DNA of 36,326 nucleotides from a virus. This document shows positions 2,436 to 20,165 of the stretch, piece by piece. The notes under the pieces were generated by a model. The model was given only the letters and a program-made list of their open reading frames with translations. It did not search any database and had not been told where the DNA came from. The translations under genes were made by a program, and so were the position numbers. Where the stretch lies: positions 1-36,326 of the IMG/VR virus record IMGVR_UViG_3300017783_000080; one strand, written 5' to 3'. Each line of letters begins with the position of its first letter. The first letter of the stretch is position 1.

Positions 2436-2439
2436 TGCT

Positions 2440-2447
2440 TATATTTG
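2440..2447 (+). promoter_or_regulatory. TATATTTG box (Bacteroidota -7-like) downstream of nrdA
   Basis: This is an exact TATATTTG, matching the Bacteroidota TAnnTTTG -7 element, and the only plus-strand copy I found. A TTG occurs 23 bases upstream (2414-2416), inside nrdA, where a -33 element could be. It starts four bases after the nrdA stop and points into about 70 bases that end in a terminator. No start codon with a useful reading frame follows. Confidence 0.4.
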
Positions 2448-2451
2448 CAGA

Positions 2452-2521: not shown

Positions 2522-2828
2522 ACTTGCAGTCTTTTTGACGCAGCTCATCGACAAGTATCTGAAGCTGTTCCATGTCTCTCTCTAGGTGATTCAACCTAAG
2601 GTTCTGTTCAGCGTCATCAGGAAGACTACCCATTTCCCCTCTTGGCCACTTGATCCTAAACTCTGAGTTCAGTTCGATCTCTTGATTGTGACGCATGGTT
2701 TCTATCTCAAGCTGAGACAGTCCAGACATAACAGTAAAGTATAGCGTAACGGCAGCTCCGACTCCGACGACAATCTGTACGAGCCACTTGATATTTATTC
2801 CAACGTTAGTGCTGTCGTCTAGATTCAC
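2520..2828 (-). CDS. Small membrane protein with C-terminal coiled coil (lysis cassette)
   Basis: This 102-aa protein has one hydrophobic segment (about residues 14-36), then a charged, heptad-rich tail (about 37-102, ending near LERDMEQLQILVDELRQ). Such an N-terminal anchor plus coiled coil is the layout of i-spanins and of several phage accessory membrane proteins, but no specific family is recognised and no lipobox partner is visible. The chosen start is GTG at 2828, which overlaps the stop of the upstream gene as GTGA, implying translational coupling. No ATG exists until residue 35, and starting there would remove the membrane segment. It is the last gene of the late cluster. A role in lysis is inferred from position only. 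Confidence 0.65.
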   Translation of the reverse strand: MNLDDSTNVGINIKWLVQIVVGVGAAVTLYFTVMSGLSQLEIETMRHNQEIELNSEFRIKWPRGEMGSLPDDAEQNLRLNHLERDMEQLQILVDELRQKDCK

Positions 2829-3034
2829 TCCACCTTATTTTTAGCGAGCAACAACTTAATCTCTTGAATGTCCTTGAGCATCTGCTTGAAGTCGTCCTTA
2901 AACTCTTTGTTGTCTGCCTCTAATGCGTGAACCCTAGCGCTTAGCCTGCCGTAATCAGACTGAAATTTAATCCAACCCATGACAAGGGCTCCTGCCACCG
3001 TCAAAAACTCAAAATGACTAAGGTTGTCAAGCAT
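2825..3034 (-). CDS. Small membrane protein, one TM plus coiled coil
   Basis: This is a 69-aa protein with a hydrophobic helix near the N-terminus (about residues 8-24) followed by a strongly heptad-patterned charged segment to the C-terminus (ending IQEIKLLLAKNK). The layout is similar to the next gene downstream, so the two could form a coiled-coil pair in the inner membrane. It resembles small XhlA-type or holin-accessory proteins in general form only. The ATG overlaps the stop of the holin gene (TAATG), and the stop overlaps the next start (GTGA). This tight coupling supports a shared function in the lysis cassette. Confidence 0.65.
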   Translation of the reverse strand: MLDNLSHFEFLTVAGALVMGWIKFQSDYGRLSARVHALEADNKEFKDDFKQMLKDIQEIKLLLAKNKVE

Positions 3035-3480
3035 TACTTCCTAGCTTTTTCTATAGTGCGTCCAGCAAAGTAAGCGCCGAAAGCTGTCAACATAAGGATT
3101 TCAAGCAAAGATACATAACTATCTTTTACGTTAAATGGCAGATTATCAAGGGAATCGAATACCATAGTCGCCATAAACATTACCATAAGGCAGATCAAAG
3201 TAACTGGCCTAATAAGTTTTGCGAGCTTCACGTCACTGTTCATGTCCGCCTCCCATCTCCTAGACACTTCTTTTTGGTAAGCAACCTCTGCGTCCAGCAT
3301 TGCCTTAGCTTCTGCTGGGTCTACGCCTGGCTCCTTGTCGAGCAAGTTCTTCACTACACCGAGGGCTCCGCTATCTGGTAGCAGACCCCCTACAGTGTTG
3401 AGTACTCCTGGTGCCTTCTCTTTAAGCCACTTACCTAGTCTCGTATCTTTAATCTTCTTCCTGCTGTTCTCCTGACTCAT
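3034..3480 (-). CDS. Holin of the 3TM type (gene-transfer-release holin family)
   Basis: This 148-aa protein has a soluble N-terminal half and then DVKLAKLIRPVTLICLMV, which begins a membrane segment (about 91-109). A second membrane segment follows (about 121-139), ending AYFAGRTIEKARK. The pattern 'SxxLxxLIRPxTL ... YxxGRxxEK' is what I associate with the Pfam family 'Holin of 3TMs, for gene-transfer release'. Holins accumulate in the inner membrane and time lysis. A weaker hydrophobic stretch (about 24-43) could be the third helix. The first 32 bases overlap the end of the giant gene upstream, and two further small membrane genes follow with overlapping starts. No endolysin gene is seen near it. 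Confidence 0.75.
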   Translation of the reverse strand: MSQENSRKKIKDTRLGKWLKEKAPGVLNTVGGLLPDSGALGVVKNLLDKEPGVDPAEAKAMLDAEVAYQKEVSRRWEADMNSDVKLAKLIRPVTLICLMVMFMATMVFDSLDNLPFNVKDSYVSLLEILMLTAFGAYFAGRTIEKARK

Positions 3481-6400
3481 AGATTTCTTGAATTACATCG
3501 AGGACTGCGAGGGTGTGGTTCTTAAACTGTCTACCGTCGTACTCCTTGACTGAGTTGTACATGTCGTTAACCTGATCCATGGCCTCGACTCTTTCGTCGT
3601 CGCTCATGTACTGGTAGTCAACGCTGTTGATCAGCATCTCCAGTTGTTGGTATCTCTCCTTACCTGCGATAGCCATGAGTCTGTTCAGCTGCTCTGTATT
3701 GAAGTACACGCCGCTGTCGACAAACTTCTGATCGTCCAAGTAGCTGTAGTCCTTGCCTGCTATTCTCAATGCCATGCGCTCGTTCTTGCTCTTGATGTTT
3801 GGCACGCTGACCTTACGCTTCTTCGCAAACGAAGGAGTAGAAACAGCCTTGGAGATGTTACCTGTGGACTCCATGAGCCTGTAAATCTCTTGAGATACTG
3901 CGTCGTCCTCACCCTGTCTGAGCTTAGTCACATCGAAGAGCTGGTACATCCATCCAACATTACCTCTTGGGTTCTGCTTGATTGGGTTACCCTTCCAGTC
4001 GACTCGGATTGGAATCTCAGCCCCTCCAAACGTGCGCTCCTTGATGGTGTACTCAAGGTTCTTCATCATGCGCTCACCCATGTCCATATCCTTTGTGACT
4101 CTCTTGTCTGGCATGAACTCACGAGTAGCCCTGTGAATTGCACTGAACTGATTTGGGAACGGAACCGACATAGCGACGTTTGCCACACTGTTCATGAGGT
4201 TCTCTGCAGATCTCTCTACATCCCCTCCAGCGAGGACTTGCAAGAAGTCGTTAAGACCCTGCAAGAAGCTTTGCTCCATCATAGATCCTGCCGCAGTCAG
4301 AGGTCCAAGACCGACCATGTCTGAGAACATGTGCTTGGCGAAATCAATCGCTCCATCGTAGTCTCTTTCTCTGAGCTCTTCTTTGTCGTATCCCACTGCC
4401 ACTGCAGCCATGAGAGCTCCTGGAGTTCCCATCTTCATGTAGTTAACAAACTCATCGTCAGGCTGCTTAGTGGGGTCTTCTCCAGACAACATGCGCTTAA
4501 GAGCGGAGATGTTGATGCTGGTGGGAGGGAACTGATCGTAAGCAAGGTTCTTCTCCTCTTCTTCATCCCAAGCAACTGGGCCAGACATGATGCCTTCCGC
4601 GAGCATCATAACCGCTGTCTCTGTGACAACTGCTCCGATGATGCCTTTAGCCATGTTCCTAGAAGCTTCGTCTAGATCTCCCTTGTTAAGGTCCGACGCT
4701 GCTCTGGCGGCGGCTACAACAGGAGAGGCAAAGGTTGCGCTCTCCAAGAGGATGTTAGCAGGTGTGCTTCGGAATGGAATCATGAACCTCAAAAGAGCCT
4801 TGGCTGTCTGCTCTCCATTTACGTATGGCAAGACATCCATTGCCGCTCCAAGCTTCTGCTCTATAAATGAGATGGATTCATTAACACCCTTTGAGAATCC
4901 TGTTTCTTCTTGGAACGTAATTCTTCTGCCTGCCGTTCTAGCTGTCTCAGCGTTCTTTCTTGGTGGGTGCTTCAAGAAGTCTGCGAGTGCGTCACCTTCA
5001 AGACCCAGAGCCTTAGCCTGCTCGTACAAGTTCTTGTCTTCAAAGTACTTTCTGAACGGAGTATCACCGAAAGAAAGCATTCTAAACATCACCTCAGCAG
5101 GCACCCCAAAGGTCCCCTGGAATGCAAGCTTAGCCCTCTGACTAGGCGGAATGTCTCCCTCGCTGATGGCAGCCATGAGAGATCTCATAGGCATCATGCC
5201 TCTAGACTGACGCCACTCGGTAGTGTCTTTGTCTTGACCTGTGATAACCTGATCAATGGTATCGAGCATGTTCTTACCCATGTGAGTCATCGCGTAGAAG
5301 TACGCGCTCAAAGAGACTTGTCTATCTACATCATACTCTTTCCCAGCAAGTTTAGCAATCGAGTTGGCAAACGCCTTCACTGGAGCTGATGTCAGGTCAA
5401 CGCCGACATCAAACACAGAGTTGACTGCGTTAGCCACAACGTTCGTTACTTGTGACATGGTTGTCAGCAAGTTACCTTGCGCTACTTGACCAACTAGTTC
5501 ACCCCATCCGCGCTCGATAACCACGTTTGTAAACGCATCCATCTCACGCTCCACCGCCTTCAATCTTTTGACAGCGTCCTCAAGCTCCTTGCTAACCTTC
5601 TCTCCTTTGATCGCTCTGGTCTGAAGGTCTTCTACCTCCGCCTGAGCTTGGAACATTCTGGCTGCAAGATCTTTCAGCTTAGCTTCGCGTTCAGGGTTGA
5701 GGCTGTTCCCTTTCTCTTCTACTGCAGCAGTGATGATGTCAACCATCCCCTTAGGAGAGCTCTTCTTCACCTCTCTGAAGTGACGAAGCAATCTACCTGC
5801 GGTGGTGCCCATCGCTCCCATCTCAGCAATGAGGTCTGGAATTGAGTCAGCCTCACCTCTAGACACAGCCCTAGCCAATCGCTCAGCTTGAGCAAGAACC
5901 GAGAGGTTATCGTTCATCATGGAGATGGCTCCGAGCTGCTCGTCGTTTACGATGTCAAGAAGCTCCTTGTCGGTCAGATCTTGAACGTCCTTCTTAAGCT
6001 CCTTAAGTTTTTGAGGAGTTATGTAGTTTCTAGGATCTTTAACAATCTTAGATCTGATGTCAGGTGAGAACTGGCTTTTTCTCTTCTTCACTCCATCCCG
6101 CATCTTCTTCTTTGTGTTGACGGAGATTGCAGCACGCTCCATAGCTCCAGCCATGTTGCTTGCAACATCAGACTCTGATGCGGCTACCTCAGAAGGGATC
6201 ACCATGCTGTCATACTCCGCCTCAAGCTTTTCTCTTGAGTCGAACTCCATGCCCAGAACCCCCTTTGCATACCCCTCGAATCTAGCAACAGCCTTGTCGT
6301 ACTTAGGTCCGCGAGTTGTTCTCTTCACTCTTGATTCTTCCGACTCGATTCTACCTCTGTCGAGCACTGGGTCTGACATGTCGTAGTATTCAATCTTGCC

Positions 6401-9400
6401 TCGCAAGAACACATCGCTTCCGATGATGGTCGCCTCTTCAGCAGACTTGATCGGTCTACCAGCCATGTCCACGAATACATTGTGGCGGAACGGATTGAAC
6501 TTGGCTCTAACCCCGTCGTAATTAAGGTCAGTTCCCGAAGCAACGAATTCGCCATTGACGCTTGCCATTGGGAACTTGTTCTCTTGGAACGTGACAATCT
6601 TCTCTCTCGCATTCTGGTTTACGTTCAGTGTTGCATTCTTGACGGTCACCGCTGGCGCGTATGTCAGGGCCTCCCCAGTAGCGCTCTTATCGTGTACAGT
6701 TTGAACTGGAACGCCTGTGTTCTTCATGACGTTCAGGTTCAGTCTAATTCCAACCTTACGTCCAGTCTCTACATCTATACCCTTCGCCAAGATCCTTCTT
6801 GATGTAGCATCTGTAGACAGAGCTTCATCCACCATGAGTTGACTCATGTTTACATCATTGCCTCTCACCTTCAAGGCAGTGGCTGCCTCTTGATTTCTAT
6901 CTCTGTACAGCTGACTTTCAGAGGCATCGATGGAAGCTTTCTCTTGTTTAGTGACAAGCTTTCTTCCTGGAGTAGGCATGATTTTCTCAGATTGAGGATC
7001 TACTTCCTCGAAGTTAATTGCAAGCTGTTCTCCTGCTGTCGCGTCAAGATTTACAGAGGAGAAGTCTGTCTCTGCGGATCTGGTCATAGCTGACTTGTAG
7101 TCGCTAACGAACGGGTTGCCCTGATAGCTGCTCATAGAGTAGATGCCATCATGGTACATGAGTTGCTGAACCTGGAATGGTGTGAGCCCCATCTTTTTGG
7201 CAACCTTTTTTACGAACTCAGTAGACTCTGCGTCGGTTTCTTTGTCGAACTGCCTGAGCTTTTCGATTTCGTTTCCGACTAGGTCATTGTAAACTCTTCT
7301 TGCTCCCCCAACAGTAGCGTTGTCACCTGACGCCTTTAGGCTTCTTACTGCAGCAAACAACTCAGCATCAGAACTCATAGCGTTAACATCACTTCCTAGC
7401 TCATTTAAGCGTGCAATAATGGACGTTCTCATCTCTTCTGATATGACGAGTCCATCTGAAAAATCTGTGACGTTAAATCGGCCTCTAAATATGTTGAACT
7501 GATCTCTGAAGTGGCCGTCCTTGGGGATTGCATTTTTATCCCCCATATTCCCCGCCGCCAGTTCGGACAGCTTAACCGCATCCTTACCCACTATTGAAGC
7601 AAGAGCAAGCTTCCCGTCTTGATCCCTTGTCATGGCTTCTTTCTTGAATGCCTCCGCATCAAACACACCGTCTTTAGTAAAGCGCTTTACAACTGTGTTG
7701 ATGTCATTGAGGTGACTAGACATGGTGTTGGCTCGGTCACCTCTTACGTAACCGAGTGTTCCCTCCTGCTCTCTTTTTGCAATAGCCGAAATTCTTCTTG
7801 GGCTAATGAAGTCTGTGGCTCCGCTTTGCATTCTCTTGACGCCAGCGGCAAACAACTGTATGGATAGATTCAAGTTTGGATCAATCTTGGAGCCGTTTGA
7901 GGTATAGGCTGTCAGTAGATCGTATACTATTTCAAAGGACCTAGGGTTCATGGTTACGTCAGGGTCCTGACTTACAGCCCTCATGGTTACGTCAGGGTCC
8001 TGACTTACAGCCCTCATGACCACATCCTTTCCTTCATTGTAGTTGCCCAGTGGGTCTGCTACGTCAATACCCGTGCCTCTAAGGATGTGCTGCCTTGCTA
8101 CGTCCAGAGCTTGCGCTGCCACCTCGACACTCTGATCTAGAGTTGGATCTTCACCGATCATGCCCTTAATAACGTGGCTTTCCATTTGCATAAGGGAGAC
8201 CTTGTCGTTTGCCGCGCATGTTCCAGATCCAACAGAGCATAAGTACTTTGCTTTGTTATCCAGCTGAGATTCGTGTCTAGCCGAAAGATCAGGGGTCGAG
8301 ACAATCTTATCCACAGTGAAGATTGCAGCACGCTCTGTGATTCCATCACCGTCATCAATCCCAAACTCCTCGTTCATCTTGTTGAACGCAGCCTCTACCT
8401 CTTCGAGGTTAGCGTACCTATCAAGAATTTCCCATGCAAACTGGTACTCTTCTTCGAGCCCCATGTTTTGCATAATGCTTTCCTTCTGTTCGTTGAGGTA
8501 ATCAACGGCGTCTGGAGTCATCTCATTGAGAACCCTTTCAAGAGCACTGATGTAGTCAGTCCCCATGAACGGCTCTTGACCTTGCTCTTTTCTGCGCTCA
8601 GTGTTTAGAGTTTCGTAAAACTTATTAAGAAGCCTTCTCTTGGACAGCTTTCTTTCCTCCTCCATTCGGGCCTTTTGCTCTGGATATACTGGAGGCTTGA
8701 GCTTCCAGTTCTTCATGACATCCGCATTGATAGGCTCCAGAGACCCATCCTCTTTAACCAAGTTAAAGTAGCCGTAACTTCTGAAGCCTCGACCCTTACC
8801 CATATTGGTCTTGTACTTCCACCAGTTGATGAACTGCCACTTGCCATTAAAGGTCATTTGCATGGGCTTGCCGTCAGTCTCGCCGCCTTCTATATCTCTC
8901 TTGAAGGTCATCATCTCAACTGTAAACGGAGTAGACTCAGGAAGTCTAGATGGTGACAAGGCGGCTCTCTCTGTGTTGACGTCTTGAGCTTCTGACTTCA
9001 CACTTAACACCTCTCCTGTTCTGATAGCTCGCTGAAGCTTTTTCAGCACAACGTCTGCTTGGGAGATGTCTTGGATAAGCATAGCATCCTTACCGAGGGT
9101 TGCCCTCAAGAACTTATTAATGAGAACCCTAACCTTATCAAGAAGCTTGGGTTGAGATGCGTCGTAGTTAACAAGCTCGGTTAGGTACTCAAGAGCTTGC
9201 TCTTCTTTGATCTCTCCTTCACCAGCTTGACGCTGCTTTCTGTACTGCTCTCCTTTGACCTTAACCTGCTCAACAAGCTCTGGGTTTCCAGACTTCAAGG
9301 CAATCTCTTCTAGCCCATCTATAAGATCATAGACTGCCTGAGGATTATCCTTGAACGCCTTTCTAAGAGCGGGACCAATGGCAGCTGCATGCAGTACTTC

Positions 9401-12400
9401 CTCTGCGATGACGGCTCGTGGGTCCTTCCCTGCCTTTCTAGCTTCAGCTAAACGCTGCGAGTTAAGGTGGATCTCAAGACTTCCGTCTGTATTCTCAACC
9501 ATCAATCCCAAGACATCACCACCTTTTCTTGAGGCCTTGTCTCCAGACTCTTTTGTGTTGTGAACTACAATCTTATACTTAGAACCAGCGATAGCTTTGA
9601 GGTGAGGAACAAGGAATTTATTTACAAGCTTTACGTCTTTCTTTGTGAGCCCAGGCATAGACGTAATACCAGCAGATCCGTCTTCTTTTGCTACGTACTC
9701 GTCGAACTGCCCCTGAATACCTCTGATATCTGACTCACTCTGAGGCTGTTCTGCTTTTTGCTTTGGGGTTGGCTCCGCTACTGGCTCTGCCTGAGGCACC
9801 TGCTCTGCTTTACGAGACTTAACCTCATCCACCCTTTGCAATGCGATGTCCATACCAGCATCGTAGTCTGACACGACCTCACCTTCTCCGACCTTACCCC
9901 TTCCAGGAGCAAAGAACACTACGTCTGGCTTATCCTTGAGCGGAGAGTCTTCATCATTCCATCCTTCTGGGGCATACTCTTCGTTAAAAGGAACTCTAGC
10001 CACAGGTCTGAACCCGTTCTGTACATACTGACGCTCCAGGTCTGTGCCGTATGCGTCAAAGAACGTACCTCCATTCTCACGTCTTACTTGCTGGAGAGGT
10101 CTAGACACACCCTTGAGCTCAGAATCTGGAGACTTAAAGAGGCCACCCATGTATCCGTCACCTTTGACGTATGCGCCAGCAGATCCATCCTCAGACACGA
10201 ACAGCTTCCCGCCTCCATCTACAACGGATTGCGCTGTCTCAAGATCTACCTGAGTAACTTGCAAGAACTTCTTGTCGCCTCTTTCTTTAGCCACCTCGAA
10301 GGCACGAGACATGGCGTTAACATACTCCTCTGGTGTAGCCTCTCTAACCCCTTCAGGAGCTTTGGGTTTTGCATCAGCCTTAGCTTTCGGAGCCACAGGC
10401 CTCATACCTAGATGGTTACGCAAGTTTTGCTCCGCCACGAATGCCTCTTCAGCTGCCTTACTGAGACCTTCGGTTGGACCAGCCTCTGTTGCTGAAGCGC
10501 CCTGCTCTTCTCTGAGAACTCTTCTCTTTGCCTCAACCTCACCCATTAGTCTGAGCGCATCTTTCTTGGCTTGTTTAGTTGCCTCTAGTCTCGCTGACAG
10601 ATCATCCACTTGAGATGGATCTACGCCCACCCCACCGAGATCTTCTTGAGCAGAATTGAGTGCTTCCTGAAGAGCAGTAACGTCTTCGTTCAAGCCCTCC
10701 ATTTTCACCGCGATCCTGCCGTCTTCAAGCTTTGAAGATTCCTCAGCAGTCAGCTCCATGCTTTCGCCTTTGTGCTTTGCAATCAGACTCTCTCTCTGAT
10801 TGACAAGGTTAAAAATCTCACCCGTAAAAGCCTGAAGCTCTTGCTCTGAAGCGCCAGCTTCTTTTGCTCTCTTGTGCTTAATTTGTGTCTGCCTGACAGC
10901 CAAGTCAATGTCGTTGATAGACTTCATGGTGCCTGGATGACGAACCGCGATCATCTGATAGAGACGCTCATTGTCCGCCCTGTTCCTCGCTCTTGACTTA
11001 TCAAAGTCACTGGACATCATGTTATCAAACGACTGAGACTTGTTTAGGGAATCAATGTTTTGTTGATCCTTAGACGTCATGTTGTTCTTCTCGACAACAG
11101 AGTTGGCGGCTGCCTGTGGGCGCCTAATAACTTCGGCTCCAGCTCTCAGCGTGGTTCTTACACCTCCTGGCGCGGCAATAGCCCCAGTGGATACAACACC
11201 CAATAGAAAGTTTTCAAGAACTCTTTCCGTGTAATCAGATTTGCTATAATCAGCATTACCTAGAGCATCTTCGAATACCATCCTGCTCGTTTCTTGAAGA
11301 GCCTCAACACCGCCCTCAAGAATGGGGTCAGCCACGCCCTGCATCAGAACGTACTTCTTAAATGCCTGGACAGCTGTTTCCTTTAGGGCTGGGTTTTTGG
11401 TGAGAGCTCTAAATCCCACGCTGGCGACGCGACTTTGAATTGTGCCTCCAGCAGCAGTCAGACTACCATCCGCGATTGCCATGCCAGATCTGGCCAAGTT
11501 ACCAGAAAAAGTATCTTCGAAGATTGGCTCAAGGCCCTCTTGAACCCTGTTGTAATCCTCCCTTTCTGAGTCAATGTATGTGTTCTGTGCAGCCACCGAA
11601 CCAGACACAAGTCTTCCAATCGGGCCGAATGCGGCGGCTACGATATACGGAGAGCTCTCTCCGATAGTCTGAGCTCCTCTAGAAAAAAGCTCTGCAGCAT
11701 CACCCCAGTTAAACTCACCTTCAGGTATTTCGCCTAAGGTCTCAGTAATCGTTCTGCCGTACTGAGTTTTCTCATTCCTTAGATCATCAGTGAGGTCAGC
11801 CAAAGCTTGGTCAACCGCTCTGGTTACTGCTTTCTTTTGCTCTGGTGCAAAGATTTCAGCAACAGCCAATGGCGCCGTTGCAAATGGCCCGAGCAAAGCT
11901 CCAGAAGATATCGGTCCAGAAAGAAAATCAATCGCCCCAGTGCCTAGTGAGATTGAGCTATCCCTAAGGAGATCCACCCAGCCTCCACCGAAACCAGTAG
12001 TCTCATTGTATCTGTCGTCACCATCAAGAGGAATCGCAAGTCCGAACTTATCGTACAGCTTGTTGGCGTAGTCTTCTTTGTCTATGCCAGCACTGCCAAT
12101 GCGCTCATTGATCTCATCAGAGTAGCTTTGTAAGAGCTGGAGCTGTTGCTTCCGCGATTCTGACTGGAAGAGATTGTTGATGTCTGCTTGCTTCTGAGCA
12201 TCAGACTTATCTGGGTTTGCCGAGATCTCATTGATCTTTCGGCTAAACTCCTCTTTCTCCATCATGCCAGAGAACATGGAGCTTTGGTCTTGTGCGAATC
12301 GATTAGAGAACTCGTCTCCAATCGTCTTCAAGCTTAGGTCTGGAGGCGATACTGGATCAGCTGGTTGGGTCTGTGATGAAGAATCCAAATCTTCTGCCGA

Positions 12401-12607
12401 AGGCACGGAAGTTATAGACTCTATAGTTTGACCCCCTAGTTCTGCTGAATCTTTTTTTTTTGACTCTTCAGATAGACCGCTGGCGTAGTTCTTTACTTCA
12501 TCGTAATCCAGCTCTGGATTTTCAAAGTACATCTCGTTGGCGATCCACGATGCGTTTCTGCCCTTAGAAAGGTAGTCTTGAATTTGTGCTTGAAGCTGTT
12601 CGTTCAT
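3449..12607 (-). CDS. Giant polyvalent internal virion/ejection protein (3052 aa)
   Basis: One uninterrupted 9.2-kb frame. It begins with a charged, low-complexity region after a short helical start, then a hydrophobic Gly/Ala-rich segment (about 213-254). Residues about 760-920 resemble the GNAT-like module of phage polyvalent proteins (NGFRPVARVPFNEEYAPEGW). Residues about 1030-1145 resemble a zincin metallopeptidase, but the motif reads EEVLH (H1073), not HExxH. From about 2377 (TTMSQVTNVVANAVNS) to about 2622 (RFMIPFRSTPANIL) it matches the helical 'large polyvalent protein' type region, followed by a possible membrane helix (about 2650-2673). Proteins like this are packaged in the head and ejected with the DNA. 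It follows two other internal-protein candidates and precedes the holin. It carries a perfect 33-bp duplication and a 10-A tract. The role is inferred, and the domain limits are approximate. Confidence 0.8.
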   Translation of the reverse strand: MNEQLQAQIQDYLSKGRNASWIANEMYFENPELDYDEVKNYASGLSEESKKKDSAELGGQTIESITSVPSAEDLDSSSQTQPADPVSPPDLSLKTIGDEFSNRFAQDQSSMFSGMMEKEEFSRKINEISANPDKSDAQKQADINNLFQSESRKQQLQLLQSYSDEINERIGSAGIDKEDYANKLYDKFGLAIPLDGDDRYNETTGFGGGWVDLLRDSSISLGTGAIDFLSGPISSGALLGPFATAPLAVAEIFAPEQKKAVTRAVDQALADLTDDLRNEKTQYGRTITETLGEIPEGEFNWGDAAELFSRGAQTIGESSPYIVAAAFGPIGRLVSGSVAAQNTYIDSEREDYNRVQEGLEPIFEDTFSGNLARSGMAIADGSLTAAGGTIQSRVASVGFRALTKNPALKETAVQAFKKYVLMQGVADPILEGGVEALQETSRMVFEDALGNADYSKSDYTERVLENFLLGVVSTGAIAAPGGVRTTLRAGAEVIRRPQAAANSVVEKNNMTSKDQQNIDSLNKSQSFDNMMSSDFDKSRARNRADNERLYQMIAVRHPGTMKSINDIDLAVRQTQIKHKRAKEAGASEQELQAFTGEIFNLVNQRESLIAKHKGESMELTAEESSKLEDGRIAVKMEGLNEDVTALQEALNSAQEDLGGVGVDPSQVDDLSARLEATKQAKKDALRLMGEVEAKRRVLREEQGASATEAGPTEGLSKAAEEAFVAEQNLRNHLGMRPVAPKAKADAKPKAPEGVREATPEEYVNAMSRAFEVAKERGDKKFLQVTQVDLETAQSVVDGGGKLFVSEDGSAGAYVKGDGYMGGLFKSPDSELKGVSRPLQQVRRENGGTFFDAYGTDLERQYVQNGFRPVARVPFNEEYAPEGWNDEDSPLKDKPDVVFFAPGRGKVGEGEVVSDYDAGMDIALQRVDEVKSRKAEQVPQAEPVAEPTPKQKAEQPQSESDIRGIQGQFDEYVAKEDGSAGITSMPGLTKKDVKLVNKFLVPHLKAIAGSKYKIVVHNTKESGDKASRKGGDVLGLMVENTDGSLEIHLNSQRLAEARKAGKDPRAVIAEEVLHAAAIGPALRKAFKDNPQAVYDLIDGLEEIALKSGNPELVEQVKVKGEQYRKQRQAGEGEIKEEQALEYLTELVNYDASQPKLLDKVRVLINKFLRATLGKDAMLIQDISQADVVLKKLQRAIRTGEVLSVKSEAQDVNTERAALSPSRLPESTPFTVEMMTFKRDIEGGETDGKPMQMTFNGKWQFINWWKYKTNMGKGRGFRSYGYFNLVKEDGSLEPINADVMKNWKLKPPVYPEQKARMEEERKLSKRRLLNKFYETLNTERRKEQGQEPFMGTDYISALERVLNEMTPDAVDYLNEQKESIMQNMGLEEEYQFAWEILDRYANLEEVEAAFNKMNEEFGIDDGDGITERAAIFTVDKIVSTPDLSARHESQLDNKAKYLCSVGSGTCAANDKVSLMQMESHVIKGMIGEDPTLDQSVEVAAQALDVARQHILRGTGIDVADPLGNYNEGKDVVMRAVSQDPDVTMRAVSQDPDVTMNPRSFEIVYDLLTAYTSNGSKIDPNLNLSIQLFAAGVKRMQSGATDFISPRRISAIAKREQEGTLGYVRGDRANTMSSHLNDINTVVKRFTKDGVFDAEAFKKEAMTRDQDGKLALASIVGKDAVKLSELAAGNMGDKNAIPKDGHFRDQFNIFRGRFNVTDFSDGLVISEEMRTSIIARLNELGSDVNAMSSDAELFAAVRSLKASGDNATVGGARRVYNDLVGNEIEKLRQFDKETDAESTEFVKKVAKKMGLTPFQVQQLMYHDGIYSMSSYQGNPFVSDYKSAMTRSAETDFSSVNLDATAGEQLAINFEEVDPQSEKIMPTPGRKLVTKQEKASIDASESQLYRDRNQEAATALKVRGNDVNMSQLMVDEALSTDATSRRILAKGIDVETGRKVGIRLNLNVMKNTGVPVQTVHDKSATGEALTYAPAVTVKNATLNVNQNAREKIVTFQENKFPMASVNGEFVASGTDLNYDGVRAKFNPFRHNVFVDMAGRPIKSAEEATIIGSDVFLRGKIEYYDMSDPVLDRGRIESEESRVKRTTRGPKYDKAVARFEGYAKGVLGMEFDSREKLEAEYDSMVIPSEVAASESDVASNMAGAMERAAISVNTKKKMRDGVKKRKSQFSPDIRSKIVKDPRNYITPQKLKELKKDVQDLTDKELLDIVNDEQLGAISMMNDNLSVLAQAERLARAVSRGEADSIPDLIAEMGAMGTTAGRLLRHFREVKKSSPKGMVDIITAAVEEKGNSLNPEREAKLKDLAARMFQAQAEVEDLQTRAIKGEKVSKELEDAVKRLKAVEREMDAFTNVVIERGWGELVGQVAQGNLLTTMSQVTNVVANAVNSVFDVGVDLTSAPVKAFANSIAKLAGKEYDVDRQVSLSAYFYAMTHMGKNMLDTIDQVITGQDKDTTEWRQSRGMMPMRSLMAAISEGDIPPSQRAKLAFQGTFGVPAEVMFRMLSFGDTPFRKYFEDKNLYEQAKALGLEGDALADFLKHPPRKNAETARTAGRRITFQEETGFSKGVNESISFIEQKLGAAMDVLPYVNGEQTAKALLRFMIPFRSTPANILLESATFASPVVAAARAASDLNKGDLDEASRNMAKGIIGAVVTETAVMMLAEGIMSGPVAWDEEEEKNLAYDQFPPTSINISALKRMLSGEDPTKQPDDEFVNYMKMGTPGALMAAVAVGYDKEELRERDYDGAIDFAKHMFSDMVGLGPLTAAGSMMEQSFLQGLNDFLQVLAGGDVERSAENLMNSVANVAMSVPFPNQFSAIHRATREFMPDKRVTKDMDMGERMMKNLEYTIKERTFGGAEIPIRVDWKGNPIKQNPRGNVGWMYQLFDVTKLRQGEDDAVSQEIYRLMESTGNISKAVSTPSFAKKRKVSVPNIKSKNERMALRIAGKDYSYLDDQKFVDSGVYFNTEQLNRLMAIAGKERYQQLEMLINSVDYQYMSDDERVEAMDQVNDMYNSVKEYDGRQFKNHTLAVLDVIQEIYESGEQQEED
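7948..8013 (-). repeat. Perfect tandem duplication, 2 x 33 bp, in frame
   Basis: Two identical 33-base units (7948-7980 and 7981-8013) lie inside the giant gene, followed by five bases of a third copy. They encode two copies of an 11-residue unit (VTMRAVSQDPD in one phase). Each unit contains an inverted repeat, GTCAGG-GT-CCTGAC. Identity at every base, including silent positions, indicates a recent duplication. Confidence 0.97.
12452..12461 (-). repeat. 10-base A tract near the start of the giant gene
   Basis: On the coding strand ten A residues encode the end of a Ser codon and three Lys codons (EESKKKDS, about residues 48-55). Such tracts can cause transcriptional slippage. The -1 frame stops within a few codons and the +1 frame after roughly 30 codons. 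It may also be an assembly-sensitive site. Confidence 0.9.
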
Positions 12608-12647: not shown

Positions 12648-14021
12648 TTACTCTCCCTTATTCCTGATATCTCTTAGCAATTTAAGCATGTCGTCTTGAC
12701 TCAAGCCAAGCGCCGCAGCTATGGCGTCCTTGGCTTGATCTCCTGGTTTAGGATCAAAAGGCATCACCACATCCTGATCACCATCAAAGATTACGACTGA
12801 GAATCCACTTCCTCCCGCTTCTTGAGCATTAGGGTTGTAGATGATCTTTTTCAAGCTACCCTCTTTCCCCCCGTCTAGGCCAACCCTTCCTTTTACGACC
12901 AACCCAGAGGTGCCCCCCACAGACTCCTCAAGATCTCCAAGACCAGTGTTGATTGTCAAGTCTCCGCCGCCGATCTGTCCAAGGTATCCATCAAGCTTTG
13001 ACGAGGATTTTGACGGGGTAGTCTTCTTGGGTTTAGTCACGTCTTGCAAGTCTCTCCACCCCTGCATCATCTCTTGCACATAGTCGTACTGAGGCTGTGT
13101 AAGGTTGTCAAACCCAGCAGATGTTCTAGGGTGTTTCTCAAACAAATCCATTACCTCTTCAGACATTTCCGCACCCTGTGGCTCAAGCTCAGACAACCCG
13201 AGTTTCTCTACTCTTCTTCGATCTGCTATAGCAGGGTTGTTCAATACGTAGTTCAGGAACGCAGACTCTGCTTTTGTAGCTGTGTCGTATGACCCCCACT
13301 TCTTTTCTTCAACAAGGGTCTTGCCGTCAACCACAGGCACTGGTCGTAAGTCTGGCTTAGACAAGTTAACAATCTCTTTCAAGTAGTCTTGCTTGCTGGC
13401 GTATTCTCCTACCTTCATACCCGACTCGTCTGTCAGAATAATCTTACCAGAGTTAGGGTCTTTAATTGTTGTCCCGTATCTGAGCGCGTTGGCAACCTTT
13501 ATGGTTTGATCAAACTCAATAGCACCTGCCTTTGCGTTATAGTAGTCAATACCACCAACCTTTTGGGTAGGGGCTTGCTTAGGATCGCCACCAGCTTTCA
13601 TGAACAGATCGTGCTGCTGCTCCAGACTTTGCAGCCCCTTGACAGCCTCAGCATACACGGGCTCAAACTCGGTCATCTCTTTTTTGAGCTTGGCAACATC
13701 CATGTTAAACCTCTCTACTTCGTTAGGATTTGCAAAGTTATACGCTCCGTCTACACCTCCTTGAATCTTATTCATGAGGTCTTTAGCGTCATCCACAAAC
13801 AATGAGTTTGGGCCAGCGTCTGATGTGAAGTCAGCGTCTGGAATCAAGGCCATAGCCTTGGCTTCAGTTGACTTGAGTGCAGAAAATTGTTTGGCGAAGT
13901 CTCCGAAGGCGTCACCAATTCCTTGGGTGCTTTTTTGGAGATCTTTCATCTGCTGACTGTAGTCTGGCAGCCTCACAGGCTGAGACAGCCTGCTGTCGAA
14001 CCTAGTTACAATCCTACTCAT
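12648..14021 (-). CDS. Probable internal virion protein (457 aa)
   Basis: I do not recognise a named family. The protein is soluble, with no signal peptide or membrane helix. The first 180 residues are mostly helical and heptad-like (for example QQMKDLQKSTQGIGDAFGDF), followed by a mixed region and a Lys/Ser/Pro linker (about 330-340). The C-terminal part (about 340-457) is Gly-rich and beta-like, then ends in a helix (KLLRDIRNKGE). It sits between an Ala/Gln-rich protein and the giant ejection protein, the place where podoviruses keep their internal core proteins, so a packaged ejection or core role is inferred. The start overlaps the previous stop as TAATG. The ATG is the first in frame and no Shine-Dalgarno is seen. 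Confidence 0.6.
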   Translation of the reverse strand: MSRIVTRFDSRLSQPVRLPDYSQQMKDLQKSTQGIGDAFGDFAKQFSALKSTEAKAMALIPDADFTSDAGPNSLFVDDAKDLMNKIQGGVDGAYNFANPNEVERFNMDVAKLKKEMTEFEPVYAEAVKGLQSLEQQHDLFMKAGGDPKQAPTQKVGGIDYYNAKAGAIEFDQTIKVANALRYGTTIKDPNSGKIILTDESGMKVGEYASKQDYLKEIVNLSKPDLRPVPVVDGKTLVEEKKWGSYDTATKAESAFLNYVLNNPAIADRRRVEKLGLSELEPQGAEMSEEVMDLFEKHPRTSAGFDNLTQPQYDYVQEMMQGWRDLQDVTKPKKTTPSKSSSKLDGYLGQIGGGDLTINTGLGDLEESVGGTSGLVVKGRVGLDGGKEGSLKKIIYNPNAQEAGGSGFSVVIFDGDQDVVMPFDPKPGDQAKDAIAAALGLSQDDMLKLLRDIRNKGE

Positions 14022-15154: not shown

Positions 15155-15158
15155 TTTA

Positions 15159-15166: not shown

Positions 15167-15167
15167 G

Positions 15168-18100
15168 TTATTGCGCGACTAATGAGTCGTTAAGAGGTGA
15201 GTTGACAAAATGAGCGTTGATAGCGTATAGTTCTTCGCCACTTAGTACAATGTCACTAGATGTTGCAGCCGAAGGCGTAAAAGACAGTTCTGCTACAGCG
15301 TACCTATCTCTGATACGCTCAGAAGTCAACCCTAAGTTAGGATTGGCTATAAAAAGCTTTGTGCCTACTGGAGGGTTGGTCAAGACGTTGGAGTTCGGTG
15401 TCCCATCCCAAGCTGGCTCAAACACAACGGTACTGGTTGACCTGTCGACTGAAGTTAGCTTTGGTGTCTGCCCATATTCAGCCAGATTTGAATCAGCACT
15501 TGCCATGTCTCCGCTGGAATTGATATAGTACAGTTCGTATCCCAAGGGTAGTGACATACCACGTAGGCTGTTTTCAAGGACAATCGTGCTTTTGTCGTTT
15601 CCGAATCCCTGATCTCCTGAGTTTACAGCTGAAGCTATGGTTCCTAACGGGATATATCTTGAGTCACTGGTGTGTCTATTGAGGTCAACGCCGCCTGCGG
15701 TGGCTATTGTACTTAGGTATGATTTTATGCCCCCTATACTGCCGTAGAAGGCGTCTTCTCTTTCTGAGAAAGAAATAGAATCAGATTCCCTGCCGTCACT
15801 GTCCATAACTTTTGCAGACCAAGCTTCTTTAGCTTCAACTGATATTGCTTGGAATGTTTTAACCATAGAAGGATTACCGTTGAATACTACTCTTATCTTA
15901 GAAGGAGATGGGCTGCCTGAGCTGTTGAAAAATCTGTTTGACAGAGTTGTGTCCTTAAACTCGTGAATAATAGTGTTGTTGCTAGACTTGAAAGCAAAGA
16001 ATTTGTCTTTTAGGGCTGCGTATCTATCAGCGTAGAAGGTGTAGTTTCCTTGCCAGAAACCTCCCTTCTCGTCATAACCGAGAGTGTACCCGCCAAAACC
16101 TCCTTGAGGAGATAGAGTCACATAGTAAATGTTGTCCTCTGGATCGAATCCACTCACAATGGTTTTGCCAGTTGCTGTTTCCCATGCAGCTATTTGCGCC
16201 TCAACTGTAGAGCTAATGTCTTTGTTTGAAATAACCTCAAGACCCTGATTGTTTACCTTCAATACCGCTCTCCTCTCTGAGTCTACAAAATACGTTACTC
16301 CATCTCTTATCAGTACAGATTCTGGATTGCTAGTTCCAAAGTCACCTGAGTAAGACACTAAGTTGTTGATAAGTTTAGACGAGATAGTCACAACGCCAGC
16401 CTGAGTTCCTGTCTCCAGGACGTCTTTGTTTATACCTAGTCTAGAAACTTTATTTTCCTGTATGGCCAGAAGCTGATCTGAGCTCATGCCCAAGAAGTTA
16501 CAGGCTCCATGCTCTGACGGCAGATCAAAGAAGTTTGCTTGAGATGGAACGAATGCAGACAGAGCAAGAACAGATGTATCATCAGCATAGGGCTGACTAA
16601 ACGTAATCCCGTTGTATCTGTTTATAGTGGCTGCTCTTTCAAAAACTGCATGCACTCTGCCCTGGCTCCATGCTTTTTCAGTTATGAACTCTCCAGGAGC
16701 TTCGTTCTCAAGAACTATTCCTACATCTACCCAGTCAGAAAGACTGCCTACTGAAGTCGTATATGTAGCTTCAGCTCTATCTGGGCCTTTGCAGGAGACC
16801 TCTCTCATTTGGACATCGCCCTGAGACAGCTGCAGAGCCGAGCCATGCTTAGGGGAGGACGAAGACAGAGTTATTCTATCTCCAATCTCATAGTAAACAG
16901 GAGTGTCTGAAGTTTTCTTTGGGGTGAGTATCTCAACAACAGTTTCTCTGCCCCAGTAGTTGTTAGCTGATGGAGCGACATTGTCTGGGTAAGTGAGGGT
17001 CGTGTTTCCATTCAAGACACTGCTTAAGTCAAGTTGGGGTCTAGCATCCCAAAACTTTGAAATGCTAAACCAATCAAATCCATCGTACTTGAGGCCCCCT
17101 TCTTTTATATCTCCAGAAACCAGGGTGATGGTGATGTTAAGGCTACTTTGAGTGGTGCAAGGGAATGTGATAACATCTCCTGCCAGCAATCCCGAGCCTT
17201 CTCCATTAACTACAATAGCATCTAAAGAAGATCCATTGCTGCTTACAGTGATACCATCAAAAGACGGTGCTCCGACATCTGCTGTCACGTTTACTCCACC
17301 TCTAGTCACCGTGACGGTGTCAGATGTATCTCCGCTAGTGTTAACGGTTCCGCTTGCAACAGCTGAGCTGGAAAGAATGCTTTCATTCGCTTCAAGCTCC
17401 CCCACTCTTACCTGAGAGTTCCCATCAACACGAGGCGCTCTCAGTACAAGAAACTTTCCTTGCGTTTGTGGCGTAGACTGATCCCACTGAATAGGGTTCC
17501 CTACACCGTCTTCAAAACCAGTGCCAGATTGAGTTAGCGTTTCTACGCCGACTACTTCAAACTCTATAATGCTACCATCGTTAGCCCTAGGGTAAACTCT
17601 TGCGGCTCCAGTGGGTCTATACGATATAACTCTAAGAATATCACCCTTAGTAAAAGAGTAATCTCTTGGAGATCCAGTGCTGTCTTTGTGTTGCTCTATG
17701 GTGTTCAATGAAACAAATATCCTGTGATCGTTTTGAAGAAGCCTGTTGCTTGCTTGTGGGCCAGCGGTTGCGGGGAAGCCGCCCGTGCCATAGTCTTTAT
17801 TCTCCATAGGCATATAAGCCCCTCCAGTAACGTAACTAAACACGTTTGAGTACTGAGATCCACCGTATACGACTTGATAGCTATGTGCAAATGATGGGAT
17901 AGAGCTATCTAGCCCACTACCTACGGTAAGAGATATTGAAGAACCTCCTTTATCGTCTGTCCTTATTGAGCCCCTTTCAGCTGGGTGCTTGACGTAGGCA
18001 GAGCCTATCTTATTTACAAAGCTAGATCTCCCCCACTTGTCATAGTATACGACTCCAAAATCATGAGAAGAGCCTTGCTTAAAGCTGAACCCAGCCGCGT

Positions 18101-20165
18101 TAGAAAAAGCCTCTACCTCTGAGTTAACGATGTAGTCTGCAGCATCGCCAGCCACATCGTGTCTCTGTCTAATTACTAGAGTGCCAGGAGTTTCAAAAAC
18201 AGTTTGGTCGCTGCTAAGTCCAGAGTTAACGAAAAATGAATTGCCAACCGAGGTGTCAGTAGGTGTAGGCATAGTAGATATAGTTCCAGCGCTTGTCCTG
18301 GAAAGCTTATATATGTAAGGCCTTATCTTGAATATAGCATCGTCTTCCGTGTCTTCTAAACGGAATCTAAAATGTGCTCTGTAATTTGCTGTTCGAGTAA
18401 ATGTGTCACCAACGTCAGCGTTTGTGTCTTTTCCAGCGTTATTGTTGACCTCCACCACCTCCATAACCTGCGCGACGTTTAAAAAGTCAACAGTAATTTC
18501 AGTATTACTTCCGAAGCTCTCTTTCAATCCGTTATATACATCTTGTGCTGACTGCCCCGCTGTCGTAGTAAATACTGCTTCCAGCCTAGGAGTCTTCGAT
18601 GGACTTAAGTTCGTTGAATTAAACTTAGAGTTTACAGAAACTCCTGATTTCATCGTGAAGTTTCCTGAGGCATTTGCCACCTTGAGCGACTCAAAACATT
18701 TATCCGTGGCGCCGCCAGGTGAGGTGCCGCTTGTGTAGTACTCTCCTTTGGTGTCAAACCCGAAAGAGAGCCTAACCTCTGTGCCCTCTGGCAAAATTGT
18801 AGCCCCTAAGGTAGCTTCAGCCCCTGGCCAGTTAAGAGCGTTACCAGAGCCCCCAGTGTCAGCAAGGTTTATGTTTATCTCACCTCTTCTTTTTGCGCCA
18901 TCGCGCAGCGTCGTAGTTGCATAAGCGCTAGTGATCGGAAAACTAACAACATTGTCTTTGCTTCCTACCAAGTAGCTACCTCCAAAATCTTGGGCTGATC
19001 CGTAATTTACAGCCAGCTCTACCTGAGGAGATACGTCAAAGTTAGGGTAACCCTCGGTGTAGTTAGAGTACATAAGCCTACTCGATGCTATCGTCTGACC
19101 CCTAGCCTTTAGCGGCACGTTATCAAACAGCTTCCCTGTGTCCAAATCAGATACGCTAGGGTAGTATCCATCATTATAGAATCTGTACGTTCCCGTATCT
19201 GCGTTGTACACTTCTTTTTCTATGCTGCTCCCTATCTCTCTGTTTAGATTTGATCTCGGGTCAAACTCGTCGATAACAAAAAACGGATTAGAGTTTTCTG
19301 ATCTAGCGAGCAGCCTCACTTTACTTACATCGAAGTAGGTGTCCGAGTCTGTTCCGTTATCCCAGGGAATGCCTACCAAACAAACGTTGCCATTGAGGGC
19401 TGAGGCTGTAATTTCGCTATCGCCTTTGCTTACGATATATGGAGATACTGCCAGCTCCGAGTAAGATGAAATCCCAGACTCTTCCCCGTCTTTGTACAAG
19501 AACTGACAGGCAAACTGAAACGTTTCGCTTTTGAAGTTGTTAGTGGACAAGTCAGAATCGTTGGAAAAAGAAAACGTAGGTATCTTTTTTGGCACCCCCT
19601 TCATGGTTAGAAGAGCATAGTCTAAGTCAATGGGCGTCGTGGTAACTGGGTTGCCATCATCATCTACTACAGCGGTAGGTTCGTACTCCCCAGCAAGCGC
19701 CCTGTCTATGTTTATTTTCCTAGGAGGATTATTGTTGTCTGTGAAGTACATCACAGTCTGAACGTTTCCATCCTGATTGAAAGCTTTGTTTATGAGGTCA
19801 GCTTTGACTGGGTAAATCTCATTAAAAGCCAAATACGCATCCTTAAAAACAGTTTGCCAAGCACCGCCATCTATAGACATAACGATCCTTTGGTCTGTCG
19901 TATCAGCCGTGTCATAAACAAAAGCGTACACTCTGCCTCGCTGCTCGTCACTTATGCTCCCAACAATCTTCCAAGTAGCTGCGGGGGTGTCTTCTCCAGA
20001 TGCCTTATCTATCTCACTGGTGCCCTTCATCGTCTTAAGGATAGCGGCACTTCCATCGGCCCTCTCAGAGACCGTAACGTTTTCAGCAAGGATCATCTCG
20101 TTCGGAAGAACGAGGCGCTCATCTTTATCTGAAACAAACTTTGCAGGTTTAATCTTTTGAATCAT
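15168..20165 (-). CDS. Large beta-rich tail/stabilisation protein (1665 aa)
   Basis: The protein is rich in Ser, Thr, Gly, Asp and Asn with alternating beta-strand patterns and no membrane segments. The N-terminal part (LPNEMILAENVTVSERADGS, then YFTDNNNPPRKINIDRAL near residue 130) resembles a large structural protein common in Bacteroidota phages. The C-terminal third has short motifs such as VTYFVDSERRAVLKV, NIYYVTLSP and GGFWQGNYTFY at regular spacing, typical of a beta-propeller as in P22 gp10-like or tail-tube-B proteins. It directly follows two neck-type genes (ATGA overlap with the upstream one). I infer a tail tube, hub or stabilisation role at the portal vertex. The exact homology is not certain. 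Confidence 0.65.
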   Translation of the reverse strand: MIQKIKPAKFVSDKDERLVLPNEMILAENVTVSERADGSAAILKTMKGTSEIDKASGEDTPAATWKIVGSISDEQRGRVYAFVYDTADTTDQRIVMSIDGGAWQTVFKDAYLAFNEIYPVKADLINKAFNQDGNVQTVMYFTDNNNPPRKINIDRALAGEYEPTAVVDDDGNPVTTTPIDLDYALLTMKGVPKKIPTFSFSNDSDLSTNNFKSETFQFACQFLYKDGEESGISSYSELAVSPYIVSKGDSEITASALNGNVCLVGIPWDNGTDSDTYFDVSKVRLLARSENSNPFFVIDEFDPRSNLNREIGSSIEKEVYNADTGTYRFYNDGYYPSVSDLDTGKLFDNVPLKARGQTIASSRLMYSNYTEGYPNFDVSPQVELAVNYGSAQDFGGSYLVGSKDNVVSFPITSAYATTTLRDGAKRRGEININLADTGGSGNALNWPGAEATLGATILPEGTEVRLSFGFDTKGEYYTSGTSPGGATDKCFESLKVANASGNFTMKSGVSVNSKFNSTNLSPSKTPRLEAVFTTTAGQSAQDVYNGLKESFGSNTEITVDFLNVAQVMEVVEVNNNAGKDTNADVGDTFTRTANYRAHFRFRLEDTEDDAIFKIRPYIYKLSRTSAGTISTMPTPTDTSVGNSFFVNSGLSSDQTVFETPGTLVIRQRHDVAGDAADYIVNSEVEAFSNAAGFSFKQGSSHDFGVVYYDKWGRSSFVNKIGSAYVKHPAERGSIRTDDKGGSSISLTVGSGLDSSIPSFAHSYQVVYGGSQYSNVFSYVTGGAYMPMENKDYGTGGFPATAGPQASNRLLQNDHRIFVSLNTIEQHKDSTGSPRDYSFTKGDILRVISYRPTGAARVYPRANDGSIIEFEVVGVETLTQSGTGFEDGVGNPIQWDQSTPQTQGKFLVLRAPRVDGNSQVRVGELEANESILSSSAVASGTVNTSGDTSDTVTVTRGGVNVTADVGAPSFDGITVSSNGSSLDAIVVNGEGSGLLAGDVITFPCTTQSSLNITITLVSGDIKEGGLKYDGFDWFSISKFWDARPQLDLSSVLNGNTTLTYPDNVAPSANNYWGRETVVEILTPKKTSDTPVYYEIGDRITLSSSSPKHGSALQLSQGDVQMREVSCKGPDRAEATYTTSVGSLSDWVDVGIVLENEAPGEFITEKAWSQGRVHAVFERAATINRYNGITFSQPYADDTSVLALSAFVPSQANFFDLPSEHGACNFLGMSSDQLLAIQENKVSRLGINKDVLETGTQAGVVTISSKLINNLVSYSGDFGTSNPESVLIRDGVTYFVDSERRAVLKVNNQGLEVISNKDISSTVEAQIAAWETATGKTIVSGFDPEDNIYYVTLSPQGGFGGYTLGYDEKGGFWQGNYTFYADRYAALKDKFFAFKSSNNTIIHEFKDTTLSNRFFNSSGSPSPSKIRVVFNGNPSMVKTFQAISVEAKEAWSAKVMDSDGRESDSISFSEREDAFYGSIGGIKSYLSTIATAGGVDLNRHTSDSRYIPLGTIASAVNSGDQGFGNDKSTIVLENSLRGMSLPLGYELYYINSSGDMASADSNLAEYGQTPKLTSVDRSTSTVVFEPAWDGTPNSNVLTNPPVGTKLFIANPNLGLTSERIRDRYAVAELSFTPSAATSSDIVLSGEELYAINAHFVNSPLNDSLVAQ

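What the first reader, a model, noticed from the sequence alone, without database searches (positions are those of the whole stretch)
3449..12607. 3052-aa single-frame virion/polyvalent protein occupying a quarter of the window
Recognisable pieces (GNAT-like, zincin-like, C-terminal helical polyvalent/ejection region) make up only part of it. Residues about 1200-2300 include several blocks I cannot assign, among them a Cys-containing block CSVGSGTCAAND near 1460-1480 and a beta-rich block around 1960-2130. Such proteins are ejected into hosts and can carry anti-defence domains.
Basis: partly seen in the sequence, partly recalled or inferred. Interest (0 to 1): 0.55.

Follow-up and report, generated by a model that had tools for sequence, protein, structure and literature searches.

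The report
Giant phage protein with swappable slot
A bacteria-infecting virus, probably of marine Bacteroidota, encodes a 3052-residue protein, probably injected into the host, that has one interchangeable slot: this virus carries an acetyltransferase-like domain there, and relatives carry in the same place a domain resembling an enzyme other phages use to destroy the methyl donor SAM and so disarm host defences.

Summary
The ORF is real: minus strand, 3449-12607, 3052 aa, beside the tail (muzzle) module of a podovirus-like contig whose terminase matches Flavobacterium and Cellulophaga phages. The N-terminal ~1880 residues diverge fast. A coiled coil and a zincin-fold domain flank an exchangeable slot. 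Of 36 proteins the slot holds a GNAT-like domain in 4 (window 754-911), a T3-SAM-lyase-like/DUF3293 domain in 7, a third domain (S2) in 11, none detected in 14. Two relatives ~95% identical elsewhere differ wholly in the slot. On the core tree the slot type changes at least 7 times. For the relatives' SAM-lyase-like domain the evidence is Pfam, PHROG, the known active-site residues and a predicted fold whose best match is T3 SAM lyase (Z 8.0). The zincin has EExxH, not HExxH, so proteolysis is doubtful. Best reading: a polyvalent ejection protein with a plug-in effector slot; in the window the plug-in is GNAT-like. Packaging, injection and enzyme activity are inferred, not shown.

The parts
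3449..12607 (-). Giant polyvalent (predicted ejection) protein, 3052 aa
11108..12607 (-). N-terminal region, residues 1-500: charged N-terminus, then Gly/Ala-rich hydrophobic stretches (Kyte-Doolittle >1.3 at 235-255, 321-340, 463-481); candidate membrane-interacting part (inference)
10538..10975 (-). Coiled-coil-like conserved segment, residues 545-690; left border of the slot
9674..10537 (-). Exchangeable slot, residues 691-978: A/E/K/P/Q-rich linkers around the cassette
9875..10348 (-). GNAT-like cassette, residues 754-911
9008..9673 (-). Zincin-fold domain, residues 979-1200; right border of the slot
   Evidence: fold modelled on the relative L014
9389..9403 (-). Non-canonical zincin motif EEVLH, residues 1069-1073
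8681..8935 (-). Conserved TFNGKW(Q/H)FINWWK block, residues 1225-1309, function unknown
6953..8410 (-). Hypervariable central block, residues 1400-1885; several types by clade
8216..8239 (-). Cys1457/Cys1464, the only two cysteines
6248..6961 (-). Phage_L5_gp82-like domain, residues 1883-2120 (Pfam match 1965-2066); the most conserved part of the chain
3458..6220 (-). Conserved C-terminal helical core, residues 2130-3050
3034..3480 (-). Downstream holin-like gene (phrog_3427), overlapping the giant gene by 32 bases
15168..20165 (-). Muzzle-like virion protein (phrog_14478; PF25729 crAss_MUZ_C) upstream

Best explanation
It is a polyvalent protein packaged in the virion and delivered with the DNA. 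The conserved C-terminal part (L5_gp82-like domain plus ~920-aa helical core) and the hydrophobic N-terminal region would do the common job of packaging and translocation. Between a coiled coil and a zincin-fold domain sits a cargo slot bordered by low-complexity linkers, into which recombination inserts alternative effector domains. In the window the cargo is a GNAT-like domain, predicted to acylate a host macromolecule, perhaps a defence protein, as soon as DNA enters. In sister phages the same slot carries a SAM-lyase-like domain, predicted to remove SAM (against SAM-dependent restriction or BREX) or SAM-AMP (against type III CRISPR signalling), or S2, a probable diverged member of the same fold that has lost the catalytic glutamate. 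Shown by computation: ORF, domain order, slot exchange, active-site conservation. Inferred: packaging, ejection, enzyme activity, targets.
For: Conserved order coiled coil - slot - zincin - FNGKW block - central block - L5gp82 - core. Slot census of 36 proteins: GNAT 4, S2 11, SAM-lyase-like 7, none detected 14, of which 8 are distant (members of each type also seeded its profile). L006 against L007: 6 contiguous 40-column blocks of 82 are at 19-63% aa identity, and they are the slot; the other 76 are at 81-100%. Core tree of 25 rows: slot type changes at least 7 times; GNAT lies beside S2 twice and beside SAM-lyase-like once. SAM-lyase-like domain: DUF3293 E 7.4e-13 (L014) and PF23780 S-AdoMet_lyase E 6.9e-6 (L015); phrog_2226, the family of T3 gp0.3 itself, E 1.2e-7 (L015); Gly-x-Tyr 15 of 16, Glu-x-Ser 16 of 16, Gln-Glu/Asp 16 of 16, matching Gly56/Tyr58, Glu69/Ser71, Gln104/Glu105 of Svi3-3 (PMC7877911, passages); model pLDDT 80, best VIA-align match T3 SAM lyase 7ock Z 8.0, rmsd 3.6, 118 aligned. 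The same domain precedes a zincin in elemo gp18. Holin and 377-aa neighbours found beside the giant gene in 8 of 8 relatives checked. GNAT homologues lie mostly in other giant ORFs; Acetyltransf_10 in 6 of 37.
Against: No proteomics. The window's own slot domain matches no Pfam or NCBIfam family; GNAT rests on homologues below the Pfam cut-off. PF23780 for L015 (26.5 bits) is under its cut-off of 28, and S-AdoMet_lyase was matched by 1 of 20 members. Foldseek found no PDB match with E<0.001, and Z 8.0 is at the border that the tool itself calls ambiguous. S2 lacks the catalytic Glu in 21 of 22 rows where the motif could be read, so at least that cargo is unlikely to be a SAM lyase. Profile-profile comparison of the SAM-lyase-like set with T3 enzymes was weak (p 0.007-0.019, probability about 2%). 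EExxH argues against self-cleavage.
Confidence: 0.62

Rival explanations
1. The slot domains are structural or assembly adaptors (binding portal, DNA or a chaperone), and exchange reflects neutral recombination in linkers, not host defence.
For: The most frequent type, S2, has lost the catalytic Glu; six close relatives have no detectable cassette, so it is dispensable; slot type is partly clade-specific (tree).
Against: Full conservation of the SAM-lyase active-site residues over 16 sequences is not expected of a spacer. The three cassettes also occur in other giant phage ORFs.
Confidence: 0.22
2. The protein is not injected: it is a scaffold, tape-measure-like or inner-core protein that stays in the particle.
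For: Large, helical, Cys-poor, beside muzzle and holin genes. No direct evidence of ejection.
Against: Enzyme-like cargo, zincin fold and hydrophobic segments match what Iyer et al. 2017 describe for injected polyvalent proteins (PMC5512222, abstract and passages).
Confidence: 0.13
3. The protein is made late and acts inside the host as a non-virion effector.
For: No virion data for this phage.
Against: Position in the structural module in the window and next to the same genes in 8 of 8 relatives checked; the cultured counterpart is annotated as structural.
Confidence: 0.03

Closest known systems
Polyvalent proteins of phages (Iyer et al. 2017, PMC5512222)
   Same: Giant multidomain phage protein with zincin, GNAT-like and novel domains, predicted to be injected.
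   Different: The main text has no occurrence of 'lyase', 'S-adenosyl', 'SAM' or 'DUF3293'. Here one defined slot is shown to be exchanged between near-identical proteins, and the zincin motif is EExxH.
Elemovirus gp18 (NC_055854, 3694 aa, 'structural protein; DUF3293')
   Same: Same order SAM-lyase-like domain then zincin; related terminase, portal and muzzle genes.
   Different: No detectable L5gp82 domain, helical core or FNGKW block; its zincin keeps HEIFH.
T3 SAM lyase (gp0.3) and Svi3-3
   Same: Fold and Gly/Tyr/Glu/Gln active-site residues of the slot domain in relatives L014, L015 and others.
   Different: T3 gp0.3 is a free 152-aa protein; here it is a domain in a virion-module giant. 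It is absent from the window's own protein.
[quoted passage not shown]
   Same: SAM-lyase-family domain fused to another domain, conserved Glu (passages).
   Different: Substrate of the slot domain unknown; the protein that holds it is far larger and lies in a virion module.

Membership tests
Polyvalent phage protein | Several domains of unlike predicted activity in one chain | tested here: met
   GNAT-like, zincin fold, Phage_L5_gp82 and helical core
Polyvalent phage protein | Encoded among virion genes | tested here: met
   Terminase, portal, muzzle, holin neighbours
Polyvalent phage protein | Packaged and injected with the DNA | not testable with these tools
   Needs virion proteomics and delivery assays
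Active zincin-like metallopeptidase | Zincin fold | tested here: met
   Homologous region of L014 modelled; best matches for this part are lethal-factor zincins, Z 5.3-5.5, 151-159 residues aligned; window region matches the ZINC profile at 3e-71, having been one of its seeds. The window region itself was not modelled
Active zincin-like metallopeptidase | HExxH motif | tested here: not met
   EExxH in 36 of 36 family rows, HExxH only in elemo gp18
GNAT acetyltransferase (window 754-911) | Reaches a curated GNAT profile | tested here: inconclusive
   Window itself no hit; Acetyltransf_10 in 6 of 37 homologues, best 6.7e-4, 20.1 bits against a cut-off of 23.6
GNAT acetyltransferase (window 754-911) | Acyl-CoA binding and transfer | not testable with these tools
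   Needs expression and assay
SAM lyase (slot of relatives L014, L015, L018, L019, L022, L024, L025) | Sequence profile of the T3/Svi3-3 family | tested here: inconclusive
   L015: PF23780 26.5 bits against cut-off 28, phrog_2226 1.2e-7; L014 2.3e-4, L025 0.035
SAM lyase (slot of relatives L014, L015, L018, L019, L022, L024, L025) | Conserved Gly-x-Tyr, Glu-x-Ser, Gln-Glu | tested here: met
   15, 16 and 16 of 16 sequences, residues from PMC7877911
SAM lyase (slot of relatives L014, L015, L018, L019, L022, L024, L025) | Ferredoxin-like/PII-like fold | tested here: met
   Beta-alpha-beta-beta-alpha-beta at 59-134 of the model of L014; 7ock Z 8.0, rmsd 3.6, 118 aligned; 6zm9 Z 3.9, rmsd 3.4, 80 aligned. 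Foldseek itself gave no significant E-value
SAM lyase (slot of relatives L014, L015, L018, L019, L022, L024, L025) | Cleavage of SAM or SAM-AMP | not testable with these tools
   Needs assay
SAM lyase (S2 cassette) | Catalytic Glu | tested here: not met
   At that place Gly 13, Asn 5, Asp 3, Glu 1 of 22 readable rows, 23 examined
Phage_L5_gp82 (PF25735) | Reaches Pfam's curated cut-off | tested here: met
   37.9 bits against 27 in the window; 20 of 20 members match at E<=0.1, best 1.9e-12

The most novel reading that the evidence does not exclude
One virion protein works as a cartridge holder: lineages of these Bacteroidota phages inject, before any phage gene is expressed, whichever plug-in enzyme fits the host's defences (acetyltransferase, SAM or SAM-AMP lyase, or another), and swap plug-ins by recombination in the slot's linkers. 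The SAM-lyase variant would be an anti-restriction, anti-BREX or anti-type-III-CRISPR enzyme delivered with the DNA rather than expressed early, as in T3.
Probability: 0.38. Interest if true: 0.8.

Novelty: new variant of a known kind. Interest (0 to 1): 0.62.

Why it matters
Polyvalent proteins have been predicted from domain lists. Here the way they diversify is visible: one slot, with near-identical proteins carrying different cargo. This gives natural matched pairs (L006/L007; window or L003/L016) in which the effect of a single cargo domain on overcoming host defences can be tested. A SAM-lyase-like domain inside a virion-module protein would place SAM depletion, or SAM-AMP removal (SAM-AMP is the signal of Bacteroides fragilis type III CRISPR, PMC12255297), at the moment of DNA entry. 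The slot also gives a way to find unknown anti-defence domains: read what sits between the coiled coil and the zincin.

Tried and rejected
A first slot census called 15 proteins 'GNAT' because the seed included L016; aligning the cassettes showed that L016 and others carry a different domain (S2), and the census was redone with clean seeds (GNAT 4, S2 11). A first core tree used fragments for several rows and is not used; it was redone with full cores, and L018, L013 and L023 were dropped as near-copies.

Profile comparison of the SAM-lyase-like cassette with S2 gave 38% probability on 19 columns only (2% with the smaller sets), and S2 with GNAT 0.2%; S2 as a relative of the SAM-lyase fold therefore rests on shared motifs and is tentative. 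PDB sequence searches with the full protein profile, the SAM-lyase-like set, its member L015 and the GNAT set gave only chance hits or none. The core model (pLDDT 57) matched no solved structure convincingly; VIA-align hits fall mainly on one helical stretch, so absence of a known fold is not shown. No relative of the core in the collection of one genome per bacterial or archaeal species. tblastn with residues 1203-3052 against 50,697 phage records: no match; residues 1-1300: 4 records, in the GNAT region only. The L5gp82 domain: no tblastn match in phages; two papers surfaced for 'mycobacteriophage L5' with 'gp82', one was searched for the term, and there gp82 is of another phage, Adephagia. 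'DUF3293': no paper. 'SAM lyase' with 'polyvalent': 3 papers; one opened, where both terms occur only in its reference list, the other two not opened. Slot content of the 8 distant relatives and 6 'none' members was not identified: 5 of the 8 and 2 of the 6 were scanned with Pfam. A possible link of the central variable block to slot type was not examined.
Full report
What is there. The window is a whole 36,326-base virus record. Around it are ribonucleotide reductase genes (4-2435, +), a holin-like gene that overlaps its 3' end by 32 bases, and upstream a 457-aa protein, a 377-aa protein, a 1665-aa muzzle-like protein and further virion proteins up to portal and terminase. The terminase matches 109 of 50,697 phage records, mostly Flavobacterium (68) and Cellulophaga (15), all below 60% identity; the host is therefore probably a member of Bacteroidota (inference). 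The holin gene and the 377-aa gene flank the giant gene in 8 of 8 relatives checked.

Relatives. One scan of viral contigs gave 23 loci; a second with the C-terminal profile gave 44 loci, including more distant ones. Thirty-six proteins over 2500 aa, including the window's, were compared; shorter fragments were left out, while L017, L023 and L065, each cut at one end of the held DNA, were kept. Identity to the window over residues 1886-3052 is 46-96% in the 19 other proteins of alignment A1; over 1-980 it is 13-26% in 15 of the 19. So the C-terminal third is a conserved core and the N-terminal two thirds evolve fast.

Domain map. Residues 545-690 coiled-coil-like; 754-911 GNAT-like; 979-1200 zincin fold; 1225-1309 conserved TFNGKW block; 1400-1885 variable; 1883-2120 Phage_L5_gp82-like; 2130-3050 helical core. 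Its function is unknown.

The slot. Between coiled coil and zincin the relatives carry different domains. Of 36 proteins: GNAT-like 4 (window, L003, L006, L017), S2 11, SAM-lyase-like 7, none detected 14, of which 8 are the distant set. Borders are linkers rich in A, E, K, P, Q, S, T, G, D (window left 71%, right 75%, whole protein 60%). Evidence of exchange: L006 and L007 share 81-100% amino-acid identity in 76 of 82 blocks of 40 columns and drop to 19-63% in 6 contiguous blocks, which are the slot, one holding GNAT and the other S2. On a tree of 25 cores the slot type needs at least 7 changes, the least possible being 3; shuffled labels need 12.5 on average, so it is inherited but repeatedly exchanged. 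GNAT occurs in three places on that tree: beside S2 (window/L003 with L016), beside S2 (L006 with L007) and beside SAM-lyase-like (L017 with L025). The same cassettes occur in other giant phage ORFs: of 55 ORFs examined only L075 has the full family architecture (L116 has a weak local core match); the DNA held does not always reach where a core would lie.

What the cargos are. SAM-lyase-like: DUF3293 up to 7.4e-13 (49.4 bits against a cut-off of 25) and S-AdoMet_lyase 6.9e-6, just under cut-off; phrog_2226, to which T3 gp0.3 itself belongs (6.4e-54), 1.2e-7 for L015. Active-site residues of Svi3-3 (Gly56, Tyr58, Glu69, Ser71, Gln104, Glu105; PMC7877911, passages) map to Gly-x-Tyr (15 of 16), Glu-x-Ser (16 of 16) and Gln-Glu/Asp (16 of 16). 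In nine T3-family enzymes the aromatic place is Tyr in 5, Phe in 3 and Leu in 1, Glu-x-Thr/Ser is found in 9 and Gln-Asp in 9 (alignment, patterns). A model of L014 residues 770-1250 (pLDDT 80) has the beta-alpha-beta-beta-alpha-beta order of the family, and its best VIA-align match is T3 SAM lyase 7ock (Z 8.0, rmsd 3.6, 118 residues); the next row for the same stretch is Z 4.3, and Svi3-3 6zm9 is Z 3.9. Foldseek's own E-values were not significant, so I treat the fold as supported, not proven. S2 keeps Gly-x-aromatic and Gln in most rows but not the Glu and is probably a diverged relative. GNAT-like: 37 aligned homologues, mostly in ORFs over 1700 aa, with weak Acetyltransf_10 and _7 hits in 6 of 37 each; the window's own copy hits nothing. 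'GNAT' is therefore likely but unproven.

Zincin. The modelled region of L014 resembles the lethal-factor zincin fold (Z 5.3-5.5), as Iyer et al. reported for polyvalent metallopeptidases (PMC5512222, passages). But the motif is EExxH in 36 of 36 family rows, while the cultured elemo gp18 has HEIFH and four other S2-bearing giants have HEVFH (L177, L179, L181, L189). Self-cleavage cannot be assumed.

Cysteines. The protein has two cysteines in 3052 residues (0.07%; 0.40% over the other 23 ORFs read). By position lists, 15 of the 28 non-distant proteins have a pair 7-9 residues apart in this region, 13 have none there, and none has a single one: a candidate disulphide gained or lost as a unit.

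Mechanism. Best supported: a virion-packaged polyvalent protein whose common body serves packaging and delivery and whose slot carries an exchangeable effector. Shown: domain order, exchange, active-site conservation. Inferred: packaging, ejection, activity. Phage SAM lyases neutralise restriction and BREX, and a phage SAM-AMP lyase is a candidate anti-CRISPR against the Bacteroides fragilis-type signal (PMC12255297, abstract and passages); either target would fit Bacteroidota hosts. For the window's GNAT-like cargo the target is unknown.

Novelty. Polyvalent proteins with zincin and GNAT domains are known; a defined exchange slot and a SAM-lyase-like cargo were not found in the passages and searches made. 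I rate it a new variant of a known kind.

Noticed in passing
8216-8239 (residues 1457-1464): The only two cysteines of the 3052-aa protein, six residues between them; a pair in the same region in 15 of 28 close relatives and no cysteine there in the other 13.
   Followed up: partly
7948-8018: Perfect 33-bp tandem repeat, 2.2 copies, inside the giant gene (residues ~1531-1553); the 93%-identical relative L003 is exactly 11 aa shorter.
   Followed up: no
15168-20165: 1665-aa protein hits the crAss-like phage muzzle C-terminal domain (PF25729, 30.5 bits, cut-off 27) and phrog_14478, suggesting a tail architecture shared with crAss-like phages.
   Followed up: no
12648-20165 against L003: L003's giant protein is 93% identical to the window's, but the adjacent 457-, 377- and 1665-aa proteins are only 69, 46 and 47% identical in their best segments: strong local mosaicism beside the giant gene.
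   Followed up: no
L090 1279-1516 and L092, L093, L096, L097, L104, L107, L110 (ORF residues): Other giant ORFs carry a GNAT-like cassette followed by one or two weak L5_gp82-like matches, so the two domains may travel together.
   Followed up: no
8813-8860 (residues 1250-1265): TFNGKWQFINWWK, a short, strongly conserved block with no assigned function.
   Followed up: no
28159-31068: 969-aa tail-fibre-like protein with collagen-like matches and short tandem repeats (9 and 18 bp at 30869-30952).
   Followed up: no
4-2435: Ribonucleotide reductase small and large subunit genes on the opposite strand, 83-99% identical in four relatives (L003, L016, L006, L014) whose muzzle proteins are only 31-47% identical in their best segments.
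   Followed up: no
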